Shown here one piece after another: positions 95 to 54,784 of a stretch of 64,000 nt of DNA. The stretch is from positions 1-64,000 of the forward strand of contig CAMOGW010000003.1 in the NCBI GenBank assembly GCA_946614435.1, written 5' to 3'. Origin of the DNA: an uncultured Prevotella sp. GTDB taxonomy: Bacteria; Bacteroidota; Bacteroidia; Bacteroidales; Bacteroidaceae. The position numbers and the translations under genes were made by a program. Every line of letters starts with the position of its first letter. Within the stretch, counting starts at the first letter, position 1. Under the pieces are notes generated by a model. The model did no database searches. It had not been told where the DNA came from and saw only the letters and a program-made list of their open reading frames with translations.

Positions 95-1783
95 CTATAT
101 AGGTTCAAATTCCCTTTCAATAACAGTAACATCAGTAGGGTCTCTCTCAATGTTCGCCAATAAAGTTCGATTCAAAGAGAAATATTCACAATCTATAGGT
201 GCTTCTCGTATGGGATACTGAGGTGTACCCTTCGTCTTGTATCGCCTACAAATCTTCTCCGTTAAGCCATAGCTGTTTACTTCCGATAAAAAGAAACACA
301 GCTCGCAATAGCAAGCCTTTCTCTTTTTCTGATAGCACTTTAGTAGTGAATATATTTTTGCCTCGTACAGGCCCATAGTCTGTTCTGCAAATATAATCTC
401 ACAAACGGTACTGCGTTTTCTGTTGTTAATCTCTGAACAGGAAACTATGTCCAAGTGATACTTCCCGCTTGAAAAGAGTTCAAATTTCTCAATGCCTCTG
501 TCAATTTCAGTGCGGTCAACAGTACCACTATTATTCTTTTTGAAGTTCAAAAACGTCGCTCTACCTTCTCCGATAGCGTTATCTTGCAATGTCATGAGCG
601 ATTCCTCATTGTAAACTTCCAATTCAACAATTCTATTATCCAAAGAAGTTACGTCCACATGACAACTTCCAGCATCTATGCTTATTATGATAGCCTGGTT
701 AAACGTGTCTGCTCTTTTAATGACTAAGTCGCACTTATATTTGGTATTGGGAAACATGTAGTCCTTTAGGCACTCAACATATCCATGCTTTTTCAAATCG
801 TATGGAATGTGTTTATCCTTGACGCATTCTTCTTGATTGTAAAAAGTACAAGACGAACTATCGCAACACGACAGGTGTTGTGGTATGGAAATTAGGAAAC
901 CTTTAGAAGCGTAGAACTTGGCATAAATTATCTCCTTTGCTGCCTCATGCAAATACAAGTCATCTTCACAATGTGGTTGTTCATCGACATGAGTAAAAAG
1001 AAAAGAGCCATCATCGTCAACATCTATAGTCAGTTCTTTTCCGCAAGCCAAACAATAATATGAATGCTCGTTCATATTAGCTACATCGTCCCTTAGATTT
1101 ACCAATTGCCCATTCTCGTCCTTGGCAAAAGTCCTATTCAAACGACGATACTCATCATAATAGTCATCATATCTGTCACAAGGGCCAGACCCAGAAGCAT
1201 GTCCAGCTTTTCTATTCGACACGCTAATATCACGAATCCATTTTCTGTTCTCTACAGAATTCATAATGAACTCTTTTACGGCAACAGGATCAAGAGAGCA
1301 TCTGTTTAAGTCAATCTCAATGCAATCAATATGAGCAGAAATAATTTTGCCCCTCTTCTTCGTATCTACTGCGTGTGTACGCTTAAACTCTATCCAAAGA
1401 CTCTTGTCCCCTTTATAACCAATACAATCTGGACGAAGCCTTGTATCTTTATCATAGAACTCAACTTCGACCCTGTCAAAACGATGCTGTTCTCCCAGCC
1501 TTCCATCAAATCTGTTTGGGAGGAACACACACTTTGATTCCGACAGTACATCTTTGGCCATCTTGTGAAGAGCAGACTCAACAGCACCTACACAATCAGC
1601 CCCACTTAGATGTGCAAAGTGGTGAATCATTTTCTCTCCATCGCCACCATTTTTAGCACATAGTGCACTTTTACAATGAGGACAAACGCATCCACACTCA
1701 TTGCCATTTGGTACCTCATCCACATGTACCAAATCGCCCTCTTGATTGAGTGCCCATGTGAGGTATGCTTTGCTACTACTCAT
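95..1783 (-). CDS. CoiA-like (competence protein CoiA family) nuclease-like protein
   Basis: 562 aa ORF; N-term zinc-ribbon CVCPHCKSAL plus MIHHFAH and HKMAKDVL motifs; RPDCIGYKGDKSLWIEFKR resembles a PD-(D/E)XK core. Start overlaps upstream gene stop by 4 bp. Confidence 0.7.
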   Translation of the reverse strand: MSSSKAYLTWALNQEGDLVHVDEVPNGNECGCVCPHCKSALCAKNGGDGEKMIHHFAHLSGADCVGAVESALHKMAKDVLSESKCVFLPNRFDGRLGEQHRFDRVEVEFYDKDTRLRPDCIGYKGDKSLWIEFKRTHAVDTKKRGKIISAHIDCIEIDLNRCSLDPVAVKEFIMNSVENRKWIRDISVSNRKAGHASGSGPCDRYDDYYDEYRRLNRTFAKDENGQLVNLRDDVANMNEHSYYCLACGKELTIDVDDDGSFLFTHVDEQPHCEDDLYLHEAAKEIIYAKFYASKGFLISIPQHLSCCDSSSCTFYNQEECVKDKHIPYDLKKHGYVECLKDYMFPNTKYKCDLVIKRADTFNQAIIISIDAGSCHVDVTSLDNRIVELEVYNEESLMTLQDNAIGEGRATFLNFKKNNSGTVDRTEIDRGIEKFELFSSGKYHLDIVSCSEINNRKRSTVCEIIFAEQTMGLYEAKIYSLLKCYQKKRKACYCELCFFLSEVNSYGLTEKICRRYKTKGTPQYPIREAPIDCEYFSLNRTLLANIERDPTDVTVIEREFEPI

Positions 1784-2571
1784 TGTGTCGTAAATCTACA
1801 TTTAGGATAATTTGAACACCCATAGAAAGTACCATACTTTCCGTTTCGTCCTATAAGATGACCTCCACATTTTGGACAGATGCCGGAATTGATGGTTGCA
1901 TTTACTTCTCTCGCTGCAGTTCGAAGGTTCTTGACGTGTTGCCTGTCGCTTACTGTCTCTCTAATATTATTACCGGTTAATATTGCAAGAACGGCTTGAA
2001 CATCATTATCAGTAAGGTATGTAGTTTTGTACCCATCGATCACATCCAAGAGGTTTTCTTCATAAACAACATGATTTTTACTCTCAACATAGCTAAGTAT
2101 TGCATCACCAGTAAAGACAACAATAGGGACGATTTTGACATGTGGGAATACTGATAGTAGTTCTTTGATCCTGAAAGCATGACCAACTGATTGCTTGACA
2201 GGATTGTAAAAGCGGTTTTTCGTTACGTATGTATATGTCTTCCACCACTTCTTTGCATATGTTACTTCTGTAACAATTAACTGAGTCCACTCTTTGCGAT
2301 TGTCGTCTCCATATATCTCGCCTCGATAGTTTTTAGTCTCTATAGTAAAGATGCCATATTTAGAAACAACGAGGTGGTCTATTTGAGTCGTTCCCTTCTC
2401 GGTTCGGAAAACCAAATCATTTAGAATAGTGTACTCATCTGACAGTTGTGATAATATCGCAGACACACGCATTTCCCCTCTCTTTCCCTTCTGCTTTGCT
2501 GAATTGTACCAAGCAAGGTAGACGAAGAGAACAACAATTAATATAATTATCAAAGGGGTTATTAACTGCAT
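1780..2571 (-). CDS. NERD domain (nuclease-related) protein with C-terminal topoisomerase-type C4 zinc finger
   Basis: N-term TM helix; GEMRVSAIL...TQIDHLVVSKYGIFTIETKNYRGEIYG is NERD-like; C-term CPKCGGHLIGRNGKYGTFYGCSNYPKC. Confidence 0.88.
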   Translation of the reverse strand: MQLITPLIIILIVVLFVYLAWYNSAKQKGKRGEMRVSAILSQLSDEYTILNDLVFRTEKGTTQIDHLVVSKYGIFTIETKNYRGEIYGDDNRKEWTQLIVTEVTYAKKWWKTYTYVTKNRFYNPVKQSVGHAFRIKELLSVFPHVKIVPIVVFTGDAILSYVESKNHVVYEENLLDVIDGYKTTYLTDNDVQAVLAILTGNNIRETVSDRQHVKNLRTAAREVNATINSGICPKCGGHLIGRNGKYGTFYGCSNYPKCRFTTQ

Positions 2572-2589
2572 AGGATTCTTTGGATATAA

Positions 2590-3324
2590 TCAAAACATAT
2601 TGATAAAGCTGTTAATCAGTTTCAAGTTTGTTGCGGTTAATTGGTAATTCCCGATACCTTCTTGTCTCAGCAAATACACTAAAGATTCATCAGTTACAAG
2701 TTTGTTTACTTGTTTTAATGTCTTGCTGTCTTCTAAAGCATATATCCCCGTTATTGCCTTTGAAATATCAAGGAACTCAACTCCCTTACAAACTATGCGG
2801 TATTCATTTTCATGTTCCCAATGTTTGTGCTTTGTAAAGAATAATAAAGTTTGATTGAGTGTTACATACCTCGCTGCTGCATCAGATTGCAAAGGGTCAA
2901 TTCCTTCTAAAAGTGGCATAGGCACTATCTCCTCATAAGTAACCTCTCCCTCAAAAAAAGAATCAGTAGGTCGTTCTATTCTGGAGCTTTCCAGCTCTAT
3001 GCAAACACCATCTTTCCAAGTGTTGTATCTTGTTTTTCTTCTAGCATACTGCCCCCACATCATAGGAGAAGCATAACCTTTCAATGTTTTATAATTCTTT
3101 GTGAGACTGATTTGTTTATAACTATCGATCTCACGAAAAACAGAATTAAAAAATGACTCAATTGCCCCACCATCTTTCAGTGAAAGAAATGAGTTTTTTG
3201 TAAGCCTTAGACTCTTATTACGCTCAAAAGAATCATTAGTAGTTTTACTGACACAGAACTTGAGACTTTTACTTTCCCAAATCTTTTTGAATGAATCAAT
3301 GGATGTATAATGATATAACTTCAT
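2590..3324 (-). CDS. DUF2971 domain-containing protein
   Basis: N-term LYHYTSIDSFKKIWESKSLKF and later WEHENEYRIVCKG are typical of DUF2971. Confidence 0.8.
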   Translation of the reverse strand: MKLYHYTSIDSFKKIWESKSLKFCVSKTTNDSFERNKSLRLTKNSFLSLKDGGAIESFFNSVFREIDSYKQISLTKNYKTLKGYASPMMWGQYARRKTRYNTWKDGVCIELESSRIERPTDSFFEGEVTYEEIVPMPLLEGIDPLQSDAAARYVTLNQTLLFFTKHKHWEHENEYRIVCKGVEFLDISKAITGIYALEDSKTLKQVNKLVTDESLVYLLRQEGIGNYQLTATNLKLINSFINMF

Positions 3325-3361
3325 GACTTCAGCCTTCGTAAGATGATTATATAAAATACTT

Positions 3362-5392
3362 TTATATCGAAAACTTCATTGGCTTATATTCATAATCCGA
3401 ACACTCCCAGACCCATTGCACGACTTGCCTTGTCAAGTTAAGGCGATTAATGGGGTCTTTTATTAAACTGATTTCTAACGTATCCTTGTTTTGAAAGACC
3501 AAAGCGATGCAGTAATTGCTTGGCTTATACTGAGCTGCAGCAAATTCGTTGTTAGTCATACGGAATTTTTGACCAACATAGTCTATGGATTTTACTTCGA
3601 TATATATGTTCTTTCCGTTTGGATCACTTCCTTCTAAGTCAAATCCTAAGTTTTGTTTGCTAACATCCTTAAGCCTGAATCCATTAGCATTCAATGCTGC
3701 CAAAGTATTCTCTTCAGCGCTTCTCCATTTTTGCACTCCCTCATTGTTTACAACCGACTTTAAGGAAGAAGAAGCATCATTAAACCACTGAGAAACGCTT
3801 GTCGGATTGTCAGATTTGTCGTCGTCATCATATAAATCATCATCTTCATCATCAAAGAGCAAATCATTTATGTTGGATAGCCCTATTTTTTTAAGGAACT
3901 GGCTAATGTCATTTTTAGACATGCCATTATCCTCCATCAGTTTGATAAAACTCTCATCTATTTCACCTTCTTCGTCATTTATTTCTTTCAAGGAACATAG
4001 TCCACCATTCGACATTACTAAAGCGGTAGTTGTCAAAGAAGGCAATCTGTGATTCATTAAAGCCTCTTTCATTCCTGCTGTCAATATTTGAGCACACCCC
4101 AACACAGATATTTGTGCGTTGTCTGCTTTTACTATAAGCGCCCCAACGTCTTCAGGCTTATTACCTAAAAACTTTAATAAATCACTCAATCCAGGAACAT
4201 CACTACATTCTGGAGCGATATATGGCAAGTTTGATGCCGACATAATTTTAGAAAAATCCTCTGCATTCAACCATGATGGAGCCAGTCTAACATTTGATAG
4301 CTCTTTGCCAAAAGCATTTTTAATCTTAATAGCAAATTCTTTTTCAAATGACTGTTTCATCAATTGAATTAGTTTCCAGTCAAAATAGGGCATCAAAGCA
4401 TCAACCATATTTCTATCTTTGTTTGCAAGTGCGTATTTTAGCAAAGAAGCATAGAGGTGTGTGAGGTTAGATATTACTTTTATAGTAGTATCATCCATTA
4501 TGAGATGCCTGCGAGACGGATCTGTACTAAAATCGCCGTTTACTACAACACCTAATCCGCAACTATCTTCCGTTGGAAGAAATGCATGGATAATAGCCTC
4601 GCTCTTTGGTAGCCTCTCAACCTTGTCTTTATTCATGGAGAATGCTATACTGCAAGTGGAATCCGAGCATACAAACCAGTTAGAAATAGCCTCTGTCGTT
4701 GATACCCTTAAATAACGTCCCCTTTCGTTCAACTCAATGACCGCAATATTCGCTGTCACTTTCTTTGTTAAATGTATCTTGATGACTTGGATGCTATTTA
4801 GGAACAATAAAGTCGTATTGGCAAAAGAAGTATACTCTTCGTCAATCTGATTAGCCAATACTCCAGAAAAGATAAAGATCGTGTTAAACCCTTCATTCTG
4901 CATCTTTCTAATTTCGTCTGCTAATTCATCCTTTACAGACTTTTCCAGCTCATGAGGAATTCTTATCAAAGGAACCTTTGGAGCCTGTGGAACGATTTGT
5001 TTTGACAATTCTTTTGAGAATGTAATTTCAAAATCGCCACTTATCAGGTGTACCTCTTTTGCAAAACTAACTACTGACTTGAATCCTATTCCTCTATATC
5101 CAATCGTCGTTCCTCTAACCTTATTTGACGACGCACTACGACATAGACTTTCCAAGTCTTTGATGTTAAAAGGTCGTCCATTATTGGCAACGAACAAAAA
5201 ATCGCCAGAACGTTTGACGTAAAACTTTGTTGCCTTAGCGTCATCTGCATTCTGCAATAATTCAATAAATGAACGGCTATTGTAACTTTCAGATACGTAT
5301 GCTTCCAGTCCTGCCAGGTCAGACAGAAGCATGGGAGAACTCTTCGCTTCAGTTATAAGAGAATCCCTCAGTATTGATAATTCTTTATTCAT
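3362..5392 (-). CDS. Sacsin-like GHKL ATPase with C-terminal DUF3883 (restriction-endonuclease-like) domain
   Basis: N box ELLQNADDA, FVANNGRPF, GYRGIGFKS ATPase motifs; C-term IYIEVKSIDYVGQKFRMTNNEFAAA resembles DUF3883. Confidence 0.82.
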   Translation of the reverse strand: MNKELSILRDSLITEAKSSPMLLSDLAGLEAYVSESYNSRSFIELLQNADDAKATKFYVKRSGDFLFVANNGRPFNIKDLESLCRSASSNKVRGTTIGYRGIGFKSVVSFAKEVHLISGDFEITFSKELSKQIVPQAPKVPLIRIPHELEKSVKDELADEIRKMQNEGFNTIFIFSGVLANQIDEEYTSFANTTLLFLNSIQVIKIHLTKKVTANIAVIELNERGRYLRVSTTEAISNWFVCSDSTCSIAFSMNKDKVERLPKSEAIIHAFLPTEDSCGLGVVVNGDFSTDPSRRHLIMDDTTIKVISNLTHLYASLLKYALANKDRNMVDALMPYFDWKLIQLMKQSFEKEFAIKIKNAFGKELSNVRLAPSWLNAEDFSKIMSASNLPYIAPECSDVPGLSDLLKFLGNKPEDVGALIVKADNAQISVLGCAQILTAGMKEALMNHRLPSLTTTALVMSNGGLCSLKEINDEEGEIDESFIKLMEDNGMSKNDISQFLKKIGLSNINDLLFDDEDDDLYDDDDKSDNPTSVSQWFNDASSSLKSVVNNEGVQKWRSAEENTLAALNANGFRLKDVSKQNLGFDLEGSDPNGKNIYIEVKSIDYVGQKFRMTNNEFAAAQYKPSNYCIALVFQNKDTLEISLIKDPINRLNLTRQVVQWVWECSDYEYKPMKFSI

Positions 5393-19715: not shown

Positions 19716-19843
19716 AACGCGATATTTTACATAAAAACCTGTATCGAGAACGCGATATTTTACATAAAACCCTATGTCGAGAACGCGATATTTTACACAA
19801 AACCCTATATCGAGAACGCGATATTTTGCATCAATCTCCTGTG
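19716..19843. repeat. 33-bp tandem repeat, about 3.8 copies
   Basis: aacgcgatattttacataaaaccctatatcgag units at 19716, 19749, 19782, 19815; the minus strand reads KYRVLDIGFYV. Confidence 0.92.
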
Positions 19844-21274: not shown

Positions 21275-21709
21275 ACTATAAGTTTTCAAAACATCTGCTC
21301 CATCTGCTCCCTTCCCGTAACTCGTTGATAGTCATGTGGTTCAATTCGGAGCAGATGGGAGCAGACGGGAGCAGATGATTTTAGCTCATTTTGCGCAACG
21401 ATTTAGCTAAAACCGCTGCGCCATTTAGCCTAAACCGCTGAGACCATTTAACCTAAATCACAAAATGACCTGAGCATGATCGTGATGCGATCTATCCTAA
21501 ACCGCTGCACCATCTTGTCTAAATCGTTGCACCATCTCGGCTAAACCTCAGCATGATCAGCCCTGCGCCGTGTGCGTAAGGCATACTAAGACAATTCTGT
21601 AGCTTTCATCTGTCACCATCTGCTCCCGTCTGCTCCGCCTTCAACTGCCTCGTATTCAGAAGGTTGGCAGATGGGAGCAGATGGAGCAGATGTTTTGAAA
21701 ACTTATAGT
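21275..21709. mobile_element. MITE-like element with perfect 37-bp terminal inverted repeats enclosing a 22-bp repeat array
   Basis: 21275-21311 and 21673-21709 are exact reverse complements; inner ggagcagacgggagcagat/atctgctcccgtctgctcc arms. Confidence 0.75.
21377..21598. repeat. Degenerate ~22-bp tandem array (about 10 units)
   Basis: Units such as gatttagctaaaaccgctgcgc, catttagcctaaaccgctgagac, gatctatcctaaaccgctgcac, catcttgtctaaatcgttgcac. Confidence 0.75.
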
Positions 21710-51293: not shown

Positions 51294-51547
51294 TTTTGCA
51301 GTGAGTTCGCACCGCATAGGAGCATTGTTTAGGTCAGTCTCTATTGTTCTTATACACATAAAGGTGCCATTTTTTTTCATAATCCTAAATTCCGTAGCAC
51401 TTTAGTTTATTTATTTTTCTAAGTTTCTGAGCAACAAAAAGTTCTTGCTGTGTCAAGCGGCAGAGCCGAGCGGCCCAGGATTTTGCCATGTCAGATTTTT
51501 CACTTACCTTAGTGCTGCGTTTAAAGACAAGCAAAATTATCAATGGC

Positions 51548-51937
51548 ATGGCAAAGGTAAGCATAAAATCTGAGAGAATCACTCCTTTTGGAGGAATATT
51601 TCACGTGAGAGAGCTGTTTTCCCGTTTTGTAGGTCCTGTTATCGACAAAGTACTGGGTCTCCGATGTACGTCATTCGGCTACCAGTACAGCGAGATTGCA
51701 GGTTCGCTGGCAAGCGTCTACTTTTGTTATAGAGAACCGCGACGGCCGCTCGGCCCTAGGGACGCTTTGCAAGCAAAGAATGCCAACGTGCGTTTCCACC
51801 AGCAAGACACGCTGGAGCGCATCTTCTCGAATCTTGAATCGGAAGACATCCACATCAGACGCGCCCGCATGGATTGCGGATCCTGTTCGCGCAAGATAGT
51901 AGAGACCGTCGACGGGGTAAGGGGAAACTGGGCATGA
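51548..51937 (+). pseudogene. IS1380-family transposase remnant
   Basis: MAKVSIKSERITPFGGIFHVRELF...LGLRCTSFGYQYSEIAGSLASVYFC joined to VIENRDG/NANVRFHQQDTLERIFSNLE...RARMDCGSCSRKIVETV; central DDE part missing. Confidence 0.75.
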
Positions 51938-52129
51938 CCCATGCATAATCACGTCTGTACTGGCAAGACTATCGTCAGATGGAGAAGCAAACTACAAAAC
52001 TAGTCAGCATCACTATTTGTTGCGGATTTTAGGATAAATACGATACGTTTTCATGATGTACACAACCTTGTGTACGTCCTCTATAGTAATTTTCGCTGCC
52101 TGTTGTGCTGTGGTTCCGTTTTTTAGTTG

Positions 52130-52137
52130 TACCTTTG
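52130..52137 (+). promoter_or_regulatory. -7 box (TACCTTTG) for helicase gene
   Basis: TAnnTTTG match. Confidence 0.5.
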
Positions 52138-52158
52138 CGGAAAATAGTTACTAAAGAA

Positions 52159-54339
52159 ATGGCAAAACAGCATAACGAGGAACTGCGCACTGCGTGGGAG
52201 TTCGTGGAGAATACGGGCCGGAGCATCTTCCTTACGGGAAAGGCAGGCACGGGTAAGACAACATTCTTGAAGACCGTGGTGGAGAGGAGCCGCAAGCGCT
52301 CTATCGTGGTGGCGCCTACGGGCGTGGCTGCCGTGAACGCGGGCGGCATGACCATCCATTCGTTCTTCCAGTTGTCGTTCTCCCCATACGTGCCGGGAGC
52401 CAAGGTGGAGAGCAAGTTCGACTTCGGGCGCGAGAAGCGACGCATCATCTCCTCGCTCGACCTGCTCATCATCGACGAAATATCAATGGTGCGCAGCGAT
52501 TTGCTCGATGCCATCGATGCCGTGTTGCGCCGTTTCCGCGACCACTATCAGCCCTTTGGCGGGGTGCAGCTGCTCATGATAGGCGACTTGGCACAGCTCA
52601 CACCCGTGGTCACGCCCGAGGACGAGAAGATGCTGGCACCCTATTACGACACCCCCTATTTCTTCGGCTCGAAGGCACTGGCCCAGATAGACTATGTCAC
52701 CATTCAGCTTGAGCAGGTCTATCGCCAACAGGATGCGACGTTCATCGACATTCTGAACCACATACGCGACGGCCATCCCACACAGGCGATGCTCGACCGG
52801 CTCAACCAGCGCGCACTGCCTCGTCAGGCAGCCCATCCTTCGGCGACCGAAGCCTATATCCGGCTTACCACTCACAACAACATAGCCGACCACTACAACG
52901 AGTCGGAGCTGCACCGGCTGCCCTCGCGCTCGTTCTTCTTCCGTGCCTCTATCGAAGGTGCCTTCCCCGACTATGCCTATCCCACGGCTGAGCTGCTGGA
53001 ACTGCGGTTGGGCACGCAGGTCATGTTCATCAAGAACGACCCCACGGGCGACCGCCGCTATTACAACGGGCGCATAGGCCGCGTGACCTATGTCGATGAC
53101 CACCATGTGCGAGTACACTGTGAGGGCGACGAAGATGCTATCGAGGTGGAGCCCTTAGAATGGGAGAACACGCGCTATACGCTCAATCCCGACACGCGCG
53201 AGATCGTGGCTGAGGTGCAGGGCCGTTTCCGCCAGCTGCCCCTCCGGCTGGCATGGGCCATCACCATTCATAAGAGTCAGGGCCTCACGTTCGACCATGC
53301 CATCATCGATGCCAATCAGAGCTTCGCCCCGGGGCAGGTCTATGTGGCGCTGAGCCGTTGCCGCTCGCTTGAAGGACTGGTGCTGGCCGCTCCGCTCAGT
53401 GCGCGTTCCATCATCAACGACGAGCGTGTTGACAACTATCTGTCGCATCAGGAAGAGGCTGCGCGCGAAAGCATCAGCCACCTGCCCACGCTCAAGGAAG
53501 AGTACTACCGCCATCTGCTGCTCGAGCTGTTCGACTTCCGCACGCTGCTCTATCAGCAGGAGTACATGGTGCGCCTCTTCTCCGAGTTCTTCTACAACAG
53601 CCATAACTCGCTCACGCAGCTGCACAAGCAGGCCCTTGATGCGTTGAAGACTCAGGTCATGGACGTGGCCGCAAAGTGGACCACCCACATCGGTCAACTC
53701 ACTACCGACCAGCTCCATGCTCCCGACTTCTTGGAGCGGGTGGGGCGCAGTGCCACCTATTTTGCCGACACGCTTGAGGCGCTCCTGGCTAAACCCTTGC
53801 AGCTCACCGCCGAGGTGAAGCCCACCAACAAGTTGGCTGCCAAGCGGCTCTCCACCGTGCTGCCCGACCTGCGGCAGGCATGGCTCTCGCGTCGCTACCT
53901 GCTCTCGCGTATGGCCGACGAGGGGTTCAGCATCACCACCTATCTGCGCGAGAAGCAGATGTCGCAGCTCGATGCGCTCGACGAGGGTGTGGTGAAGAAG
54001 TCGCGCAAGAGGGCCGAGCCGAAGCCCAAGGAGCCGAAGCCAAGGACCTGGGAGGTGTCGTGGGCGCTTTATCAGGAAGGCAACAGTCCGCAAGACATAG
54101 CCCACAGCCGAGGGCTCACCCTTGGCACGGTGTTCGGTCACTTGTCTCGTTTCGTTGCCTCGGGGCAGCTGTCGCTCGACGTGCTCGTGCCTCCAGCCCA
54201 TCAGCAAGCCATCCGTCGGGCGCTGCAGATGGTGAGTCAGGGCGAGAGTTCCAACGCAGTCAAGGCACTTTGTCCGCCTGATGTCACCTACGATGAGATT
54301 CGTCTGATGATGAACCTCGCTTCGCGTTCTGAGTCTTAG
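52159..54339 (+). CDS. PIF1/RecD-like AAA helicase with C-terminal HTH
   Basis: IFLTGKAGTGKTTFLKTV; VVAPTGVAAVNAGGMTIHSFFQL; LLIIDEISMVRSDLLDAID; AITIHKSQGLTFDHAII; YVALSRCRSLEGL. Confidence 0.92.
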   Translation: MAKQHNEELRTAWEFVENTGRSIFLTGKAGTGKTTFLKTVVERSRKRSIVVAPTGVAAVNAGGMTIHSFFQLSFSPYVPGAKVESKFDFGREKRRIISSLDLLIIDEISMVRSDLLDAIDAVLRRFRDHYQPFGGVQLLMIGDLAQLTPVVTPEDEKMLAPYYDTPYFFGSKALAQIDYVTIQLEQVYRQQDATFIDILNHIRDGHPTQAMLDRLNQRALPRQAAHPSATEAYIRLTTHNNIADHYNESELHRLPSRSFFFRASIEGAFPDYAYPTAELLELRLGTQVMFIKNDPTGDRRYYNGRIGRVTYVDDHHVRVHCEGDEDAIEVEPLEWENTRYTLNPDTREIVAEVQGRFRQLPLRLAWAITIHKSQGLTFDHAIIDANQSFAPGQVYVALSRCRSLEGLVLAAPLSARSIINDERVDNYLSHQEEAARESISHLPTLKEEYYRHLLLELFDFRTLLYQQEYMVRLFSEFFYNSHNSLTQLHKQALDALKTQVMDVAAKWTTHIGQLTTDQLHAPDFLERVGRSATYFADTLEALLAKPLQLTAEVKPTNKLAAKRLSTVLPDLRQAWLSRRYLLSRMADEGFSITTYLREKQMSQLDALDEGVVKKSRKRAEPKPKEPKPRTWEVSWALYQEGNSPQDIAHSRGLTLGTVFGHLSRFVASGQLSLDVLVPPAHQQAIRRALQMVSQGESSNAVKALCPPDVTYDEIRLMMNLASRSES

Positions 54340-54574
54340 GCAGTACGATATCCTGTTTTAGGCAATTTCGTGTAGCGTTCTACCCAAAATCACAACATGA
54401 TATAAGTTAGATGGCATGGTGATATAGGATAAACCGTGTCATGATATAGAATAGACCGTGCTGTGATTTAGAATAGAACTCATTGTGCTTTAGAATAGAA
54501 CTCATTGTGCTTTAGAATAGAAGTCATCGTGCTTTAGGATAAACAGCATTGTGCTATAAGGTAGGCCATGTTGT
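54333..54574. repeat. 22-bp degenerate tandem array, 11 units
   Basis: Units at exact 22-bp spacing, e.g. gatataggataaaccgtgtcat, gatatagaatagaccgtgctgt, gctttagaatagaactcattgt; first three units are more diverged. Confidence 0.85.
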
Positions 54575-54612
54575 GGCTGAGGTTGTATTCTTCTTTACTC
54601 TACTATCCAATA

Positions 54613-54784
54613 AAGTTTTCAAAACATCTGCTCCATCTGCTCCTTTGCGTAACACATTGATTTTCATTTGTTTACGTGCGGAGCAGATAAAAATCATCTG
54701 CTCCCATCTGCTCCGCTTCCTAACTGTTTGCTTTTCAGGAAGTTAGCTAAAAGGGAGCAGATGGAGCAGATGTTTTGCAAACTT
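54613..54784. mobile_element. Nested inverted-repeat element related to 21275-21709, without internal array
   Basis: aagttttcaaaacatctgctccatctgctcc (54613) vs ggagcagatggagcagatgttttgcaaactt (54754), 30/31 complementary; inner cggagcagat/atctgctccg arms. Confidence 0.75.

What the first reader, a model, noticed from the sequence alone, without database searches (positions are those of the whole stretch)
54333..54574. Eleven-unit 22-bp array starting in the stop codon region of a PIF1-like helicase
Units keep exact 22-bp phase for 242 bp despite strong sequence drift, e.g. GATATAGGATAAACCGTGTCAT and GCTTTAGAATAGAACTCATTGT. Phase kept while sequence diverges suggests selection for spacing (about two helical turns), like a multi-site protein-binding array. 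Core TA-GG/CC-TAAACCG matches the array at 21377-21598.
Basis: partly seen in the sequence, partly recalled or inferred. Interest (0 to 1): 0.72.

Follow-up and report, generated by a model that had tools for sequence, protein, structure and literature searches.

The report
Iteron-like repeat array of mobile elements
The 22-base repeats next to this helicase gene are one of dozens of scattered, gene-less remnants of a small mobile DNA element; in its gene-bearing relatives the same kind of array sits just upstream of a DNA-replication helicase gene, so it probably began as that element's replication-control site.

Summary
In detail: eleven 22-bp units at 54333-54574 (lag-22 identity 0.67; shuffles mean 0.27, maximum 0.39), same motif as at 21377-21598. 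The PIF1-like helicase is a bystander. Units are 19-bp palindromes plus 3 bp. 28 of 37 copies of a species-specific hairpin/inverted-repeat module have such an array beside them. The window copies (21280-21704; 54333-54784) look like gene-less derivatives of an element in the same genome (G000:C22): hairpin, 22-bp array, 433-aa VapE-like SF3 helicase gene, hairpin. In a complete congener, three array families sit directly upstream of BT4734/VapE genes, and short copies of one family keep its inverted repeats and gene remnants. Among 17 VapE homologues chosen by protein similarity alone, 22 (or 44) bp is the top upstream repeat spacing in 13, versus 4 of 130 control genes (p 4e-12); unit sequences differ but are palindromic. 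Best reading: iteron-like origin or operator of a VapE-type replication module, dispersed as MITE-like relics. Binding, replication and mobility are inferred, not shown.

The parts
54333..54574 (.). Array of eleven 22-bp units (19-bp palindrome plus 3 bp; species consensus GTGATYTAGCCTAAATCACGAC)
   Evidence: lag-22 identity 0.673, z 13.5; nine of ten full units in the best phase score 9.9-21.3 bits with the species matrix
54612..54784 (.). Joined double hairpin with inverted-repeat ends (AAAGTTTTCAAAACATCTGCTCCATCTGCTCC.. / ..GGAGCAGATGGAGCAGATGTTTTGCAAACTT)
   Evidence: sequence; dispersed family; RNA fold -85.1 kcal/mol, z -10.3
21280..21377 (.). Left hairpin / inverted repeat of the second window copy
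21380..21547 (.). 22-bp array of the second window copy, same motif, one phase jump
21608..21704 (.). Right hairpin / inverted repeat of the second window copy; with the left one it gives hairpin-array-hairpin of 425 bp
52105..54339 (+). PIF1-like helicase with HTH_40 domain: neighbouring host gene, not part of the element
   Evidence: Pfam; no special association with arrays in relatives

Best explanation
The array is the cis-acting part of a small inverted-repeat-bounded mobile element built around a VapE-like SF3 helicase gene (in some families with a BT4734-type N-terminal domain). In gene-bearing elements about 5-12 palindromic 22-bp units lie upstream of the helicase gene, within about 300 bp. 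SHOWN: the array motif plus hairpin ends flank a VapE ORF in the window's own genome; three array families of one congener match arrays directly upstream of BT4734/VapE genes; short copies in that congener share the inverted repeats, array and gene remnants of a 3.2-kb gene-bearing element, i.e. are internal-deletion derivatives; 22-bp spacing upstream of VapE homologues is conserved in Bacteroidales while sequence is not. INFERRED: oligomers of the element's replication protein (or a partner) bind the palindromes on one face of the helix, two turns apart, as an iteron-type origin and/or autoregulatory operator; gene-less copies were mobilised in trans and then drifted. The two window loci are such gene-less copies.
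For: 28 of 37 hairpin loci carry a 22/44-bp array. Own-genome element L335 = G000:C22:20690-22565: hairpin, array, 433-aa ORF with PF05272 (1.5e-31) and DUF3874, hairpin, nearest solved chain 7pds 'Similar to D. nodosus vapE'. G040: L320 full element and its deletion derivatives; 6 of 8 BT4734 genes with a 22-bp array directly upstream and matching dispersed array families. G078: array then VapE ORF. Homologues picked by protein only: 13 of 17 versus 4 of 130; palindromic units in all nine homologue arrays tested, p <= 0.04. Mirrored degeneracy without half-site covariation. SaPI and SCC helicases bind iterons next to their own gene (PMC7581432).
Against: No binding, replication or mobility data. 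Only one gene-bearing copy is known in the window's species; the deletion history of the window copies is argued by analogy with G040. In many loci, including 54.3 kb, the array lies outside the hairpin pair. SaPI origins are downstream of rep, here the array is upstream. Classical iterons are bound by Rep monomers; these are palindromes. One family has 25-bp units. In G016 (747-aa BT4734 gene) the upstream array is 14-bp and differs from the dispersed 22-bp family, so the partner gene of the G016 arrays was not found.
Confidence: 0.65

Rival explanations
1. Neutral minisatellite inside a MITE, as described for BrickBuilt of Porphyromonas gingivalis: arrays grow by slippage and drift; the 22-bp period is historical and nothing binds it.
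For: Arrays sit in dispersed inverted-repeat elements; a near-identical run of 25-bp units in one G040 copy (0.99 identity) shows recent unit amplification; 22-bp gaps in alignments; low indel rates also outside the array.
Against: The same 22-bp period recurs with unrelated sequences upstream of VapE genes in other genera; shared consensus with uneven, mirrored conservation across 28 loci.
Confidence: 0.2
2. Operator or chromosome-organising array for a host or element-encoded regulator (for example an HU-family or HTH protein), not a replication origin.
For: Palindromic sites suit a dimeric regulator; arrays lie in the promoter region of VapE genes; HU-family genes lie on the other side of the array in several Bacteroides loci; order of 200 arrays per genome extrapolated for G016 (14 in 200 kb).
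Against: Unit sequence differs between element families within one genome (G040), which is not expected for one host protein; no HU gene next to the L335 or L320 arrays.
Confidence: 0.1
3. RNA or ssDNA hairpin element (REP/BIME-like, terminator or attenuator).
For: Units are palindromic and the adjacent hairpin module folds very stably (z -10.3).
Against: No within-unit covariation; the array itself folds weakly (z -1.8); nothing at Rfam gathering thresholds; no terminator-like site; no gene-orientation preference (my count: 7 convergent, 6 divergent, 15 tandem); no Y1 transposase found in G000.
Confidence: 0.03
4. An array functionally tied to the PIF1-like helicase gene.
For: It starts in the helicase stop codon region.
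Against: Arrays and hairpins occur at dozens of unrelated loci; no enrichment next to the helicase in relatives.
Confidence: 0.02

Closest known systems
BrickBuilt MITE of Porphyromonas gingivalis (PMC4596501)
   Same: Short tandem array without spacers inside a dispersed, intergenic, species-restricted element with leader/tail and inverted-repeat ends; units conserved in part and drifting in part.
   Different: 23-nt unit of another sequence, other inverted-repeat tips (IS5-like GAGACCTTTGCA), no replication gene described; here the unit is 22 bp and a gene-bearing VapE relative exists.
Iteron origins of plasmids (R6K, pPS10, P1, F; PMC4980987)
   Same: Tandem repeats of 17-22 bp next to a replication gene; phase-sensitive cooperative binding is known there.
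   Different: Classical iterons are bound by Rep monomers of winged-helix type; here the units are palindromes and the candidate initiator is a VapE/SF3 helicase; chromosomally dispersed gene-less copies.
Replication modules of SaPI/PICI and SCCmec islands (Pri-Rep, Cch2; PMC6092414, PMC7581432)
   Same: Helicase initiator (with or without a primase) beside a repeat-containing origin; VapE-like helicase homology (nearest PDB chain 7pds).
   Different: SaPI origin is downstream of rep; those islands carry integrase or recombinase genes and are larger; here elements of 1.9-3.2 kb with inverted-repeat ends and no integrase or transposase found.
REP/BIME palindromes (PMC3733652)
   Same: Dispersed intergenic palindromic repeats.
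   Different: No Y1 (RAYT) transposase in G000, no GTAG/CGTC tag in the consensus, no half-site covariation.

Membership tests
BrickBuilt MITE | 23-nt unit AGAYCATARTATCCTCTCRTRTG | tested here: not met
   Unit is 22 bp with consensus GTGATYTAGCCTAAATCACGAC
BrickBuilt MITE | IS5-like terminal inverted repeat GAGACCTTTGCA | tested here: not met
   Ends here are AAAGTTTKCAAAACATCTGCTCC
BrickBuilt MITE | Dispersed intergenic minisatellite in an inverted-repeat element | tested here: met
   37 hairpin loci, 28 with array
BrickBuilt MITE | Bidirectional promoter activity | not testable with these tools
   Needs a reporter assay
Iteron-type replication origin | Tandem direct repeats of about 17-22 bp | tested here: met
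   22-bp units
Iteron-type replication origin | Located next to the cognate replication gene | tested here: met
   Met for L335, L320, L328-L334, L336 and 13 of 17 homologues; not met for the two window copies, which lack the gene
Iteron-type replication origin | Specific initiator binding and array-dependent replication | not testable with these tools
   Needs EMSA and plasmid assays
Iteron-type replication origin | AT-rich unwinding element and DnaA boxes | not tested
   -
PICI/SaPI island | Integrase gene and attachment sites | tested here: not met
   No integrase ORF between the ends of L335 or L320
PICI/SaPI island | VapE/Rep-type helicase | tested here: met
   PF05272 1.5e-31; phrog_1313 DNA helicase; 7pds
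REP/BIME with RAYT | Y1 transposase in the genome | tested here: not met
   PF01797 absent from G000, present in congeners; G000 is only 56% complete, so absence is provisional
CRISPR array | Conserved repeats separated by unique spacers | tested here: not met
   Units abut without spacers

The most novel reading that the evidence does not exclude
A previously undescribed class of tiny mobile replicons in Bacteroidales: elements of about 1.9-3.2 kb whose ends are inverted repeats built of short tandem repeats, whose only recognisable replication gene is a VapE/BT4734 helicase, and whose origin is a 22-bp-phased array of palindromes that turns over in sequence but not in spacing. They move without any transposase or integrase recognised here and seed gene-less copies by the dozen to possibly hundreds per genome.
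Probability: 0.35. Interest if true: 0.88.

Novelty: new variant of a known kind. Interest (0 to 1): 0.7.

Why it matters
It gives a source and a partner gene to a conspicuous class of intergenic repeats in this Prevotella genus (about 0.3 arrays per kb of noncoding DNA in the congeners sampled, none in 59 kb of noncoding DNA outside the genus) and a testable rule: VapE/BT4734 genes of Bacteroidales carry 22-bp-phased palindromic arrays upstream. That could make the origin and control of these replication modules directly accessible to experiment. It also suggests where to look for the parent of unexplained minisatellite MITEs such as BrickBuilt.

Tried and rejected
Helicase association: tested on helicase loci against congener intergenics, no enrichment. 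RNA function: Rfam, folding, terminator scan and half-site covariation all negative for the array. REP/RAYT: no Y1 transposase in G000. Direct orthologous comparison of the window array: G023 is identical wherever it overlaps and other relatives are too divergent (helicase about 70% identical at best), so phase conservation at this exact locus could not be tested. Target-site duplications sought in G040 copies: none clear. A conserved coding-like tail in G016 copies (ARIWNEGDLRFKYASYAKAIVNILERN) matched nothing but its own copies. Phylum-wide search with the G016 model found nothing, but that model also scores zero in G000, so it only speaks for that variant. Literature searches found no description of these arrays or of inverted-repeat-bounded VapE elements in the held library.

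Full report
1. The observation. Eleven 22-mers run from 54333 to 54574, the first starting inside the last codons of the ORF 52105-54339. Lag-22 identity is 0.673 against a shuffle mean of 0.265 and maximum of 0.391. The array at 21377-21598 has the same period (0.47, z 7.1) and the same motif. The ORF is a PIF1-like helicase with an HTH_40 tail.

2. It is a dispersed composite repeat. The window's genome (G000, 56% complete) is a Prevotellaceae assembly; its closest helicase homologues come mostly from rumen and gut Prevotella MAGs. Beside the array lies an inverted-repeat module with arms AAAGTTTTCAAAACATCTGCTCCATCTGCTCC. The pattern ATCTGCTCC-N0..2-TCTGCTCC has 64 hits in G000 and none for the reversed control; of 150 congeners six have any hit, and only the near-identical assembly G023 has many. 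Of 37 distinct hairpin loci, 28 have a 22- or 44-bp-phased array within about 300 bp. Flanking genes show no orientation preference; my count is 7 convergent, 6 divergent, 15 tandem.

3. The unit. Expectation-maximisation over 28 arrays gives 191 units: a 19-bp palindrome plus 3 bp, 16 bits of information, dyad score 0.477 against a mean of 0.255. Degenerate positions mirror each other (A/G on one side, T/C on the other), yet within single units the halves are no more complementary than independent columns predict (0.504 versus 0.516). That fits a site read by a symmetric protein, not a selected RNA hairpin or cruciform (inference). Indels inside arrays are rare, 0.45 per 100 mismatches, but in the G016 element the tail is equally indel-poor (0.37 against 0.54 for the array), so phase retention in one relic copy is not proof of selection.

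4. Genus-wide, with species-specific motifs. In sampled stretches, noncoding arrays of congeners are 22/44-bp in 30 of 47 cases against 0 of 15 in other families and classes of the phylum (p 6e-6). One of the 30 (G091, L289) lay in a stretch chosen because it held an array; the rest were not chosen for arrays. Unit consensus differs by species: G016 GTAATTTGANGCAAATTAC, G101 GCAATATGACGCATATTGC, G085 GTAATATGACTCATATTGC, G066 TGCGTTTTAGGCTGTTTCGCA, G001 TGTAATCAGGTGCTGATTACA. Loci other than the sampled stretches were found with 22-bp dimer models, so their period is partly by construction.

5. The parent element in a congener. In the complete genome G040, array elements of about 800 bp have inverted repeats of about 160 bp. 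Locus L320 has the same ends plus two genes: inverted repeat 708-887, DUF6078 ORF 941-1393, 22-bp array 1421-1570, a 710-aa BT4734-N/VapE/DUF3874 protein 1626-3758, inverted repeat 3701-3885. The short elements share the ends (83-89% identity), the array and in some cases 3' remnants of either gene, so they are internal-deletion derivatives. Six of eight BT4734 genes in G040 have a 22-bp array directly upstream, in three families, and the five arrays met in the sampled G040 stretches match those families.

6. The same in the window's own genome. L335 (G000:C22:18000-28000) reads hairpin 2691-2783, array 2932-3085, a 433-aa ORF 3140-4441, hairpin about 4464-4566. The ORF hits PF05272 at 1.5e-31 and DUF3874 and phrog_1313 DNA helicase; the nearest solved chain is 7pds, 'Similar to D. 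nodosus vapE'. Its array units score 12.8-24.7 bits with the species matrix, to which this locus contributed as one of 28 arrays. The window copy 21280-21704 is hairpin-array-hairpin without the gene; the copy at 54333-54784 is an array beside a joined double hairpin. G078 has an array followed by a VapE ORF.

7. Independent test. VapE homologues were taken from plasmid and phage collections by protein similarity only. In the 450 bp upstream the best self-match lag is 22 or 44 in 13 of 17, against 4 of 130 other genes with at least 150 bp of noncoding DNA upstream (Fisher p 3.6e-12). One of the 13 (L345) is a weak tie, and several come from the same strains (five from one Bacteroides finegoldii strain), so they are not all independent. 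The units differ in sequence and are palindromic: p <= 0.04 in all nine homologue arrays tested. In Parabacteroides distasonis the gene pair DUF6078 + BT4734 recurs around the array, as in L320. Three homologue loci (L340, L345, L348) show inverted repeats flanking array + gene; the L345 ends (AAAGTTTG..ACATCTGC, GCAGATAAAAACATCTGC) resemble those of the window's species. Several of the 'plasmid' records are probably chromosomal contigs, judging by their housekeeping neighbours.

8. Mechanism. SaPI and SCC initiator helicases recognise repeats beside their own gene (PMC7581432; PMC6092414); iteron plasmids use 17-22-bp direct repeats whose cooperativity is lost on half-turn displacement (PMC4980987). 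By analogy the array is most likely the binding platform of the element's replication protein: origin and/or operator. Shown: architecture, homology, conserved spacing, derivation of short copies in G040. Inferred: binding, replication, mobilisation in trans, and that the window copies derive from a gene-bearing parent. How the elements move is unknown; no integrase or transposase lies between the ends of L335 or L320.

9. Verdict. Known kinds: iteron-like arrays, minisatellite MITEs. New: their union in small VapE elements and the genus-wide dispersal.

Noticed in passing
L184 versus L188 (G000:C28): Two arrays about 4 kb apart are nearly identical over about 150 bp while the adjacent leader is only about 70% identical, suggesting array block exchange or conversion.
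   Followed up: partly
window 51400-52050: Another dispersed repeat: stretches here have 86-98% identical copies elsewhere in G023.
   Followed up: no
L042 (G000:C17), about 1438-1750: CRISPR-like array: 36-nt repeat GTTGTGGTTTGATGTAGAAAAGAGATATAAAGCAAT with unique spacers, directly beside a hairpin copy.
   Followed up: no
window 19716-19831: A 33-bp tandem repeat, 3.5 copies, 91% matches, in a convergent intergenic region.
   Followed up: no
L320 / L295 (G040): The full-length BT4734/VapE element lies next to a gene that looks like a CRISPR Cas6 (own reading of the translation).
   Followed up: no
G016 copies, e.g. L205 about 1630-1704: The element tail keeps a coding-like stretch (ARIWNEGDLRFKYASYAKAIVNILERN) between diverged copies; its parent gene was not found.
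   Followed up: partly
L347, L349, L350, L351: HU-family DNA-binding genes lie divergently on the other side of the array upstream of BT4734/VapE genes in Bacteroides.
   Followed up: no
L350, 239-305 and 1329-1395: Perfect 67-bp inverted repeat flanking the HU gene and the array upstream of a BT4734 gene in Bacteroides finegoldii; possibly an invertible segment.
   Followed up: no
L325 (G016) and L327 (G066): BT4734-type genes with 14-bp and 24-bp arrays upstream instead of 22-bp.
   Followed up: no
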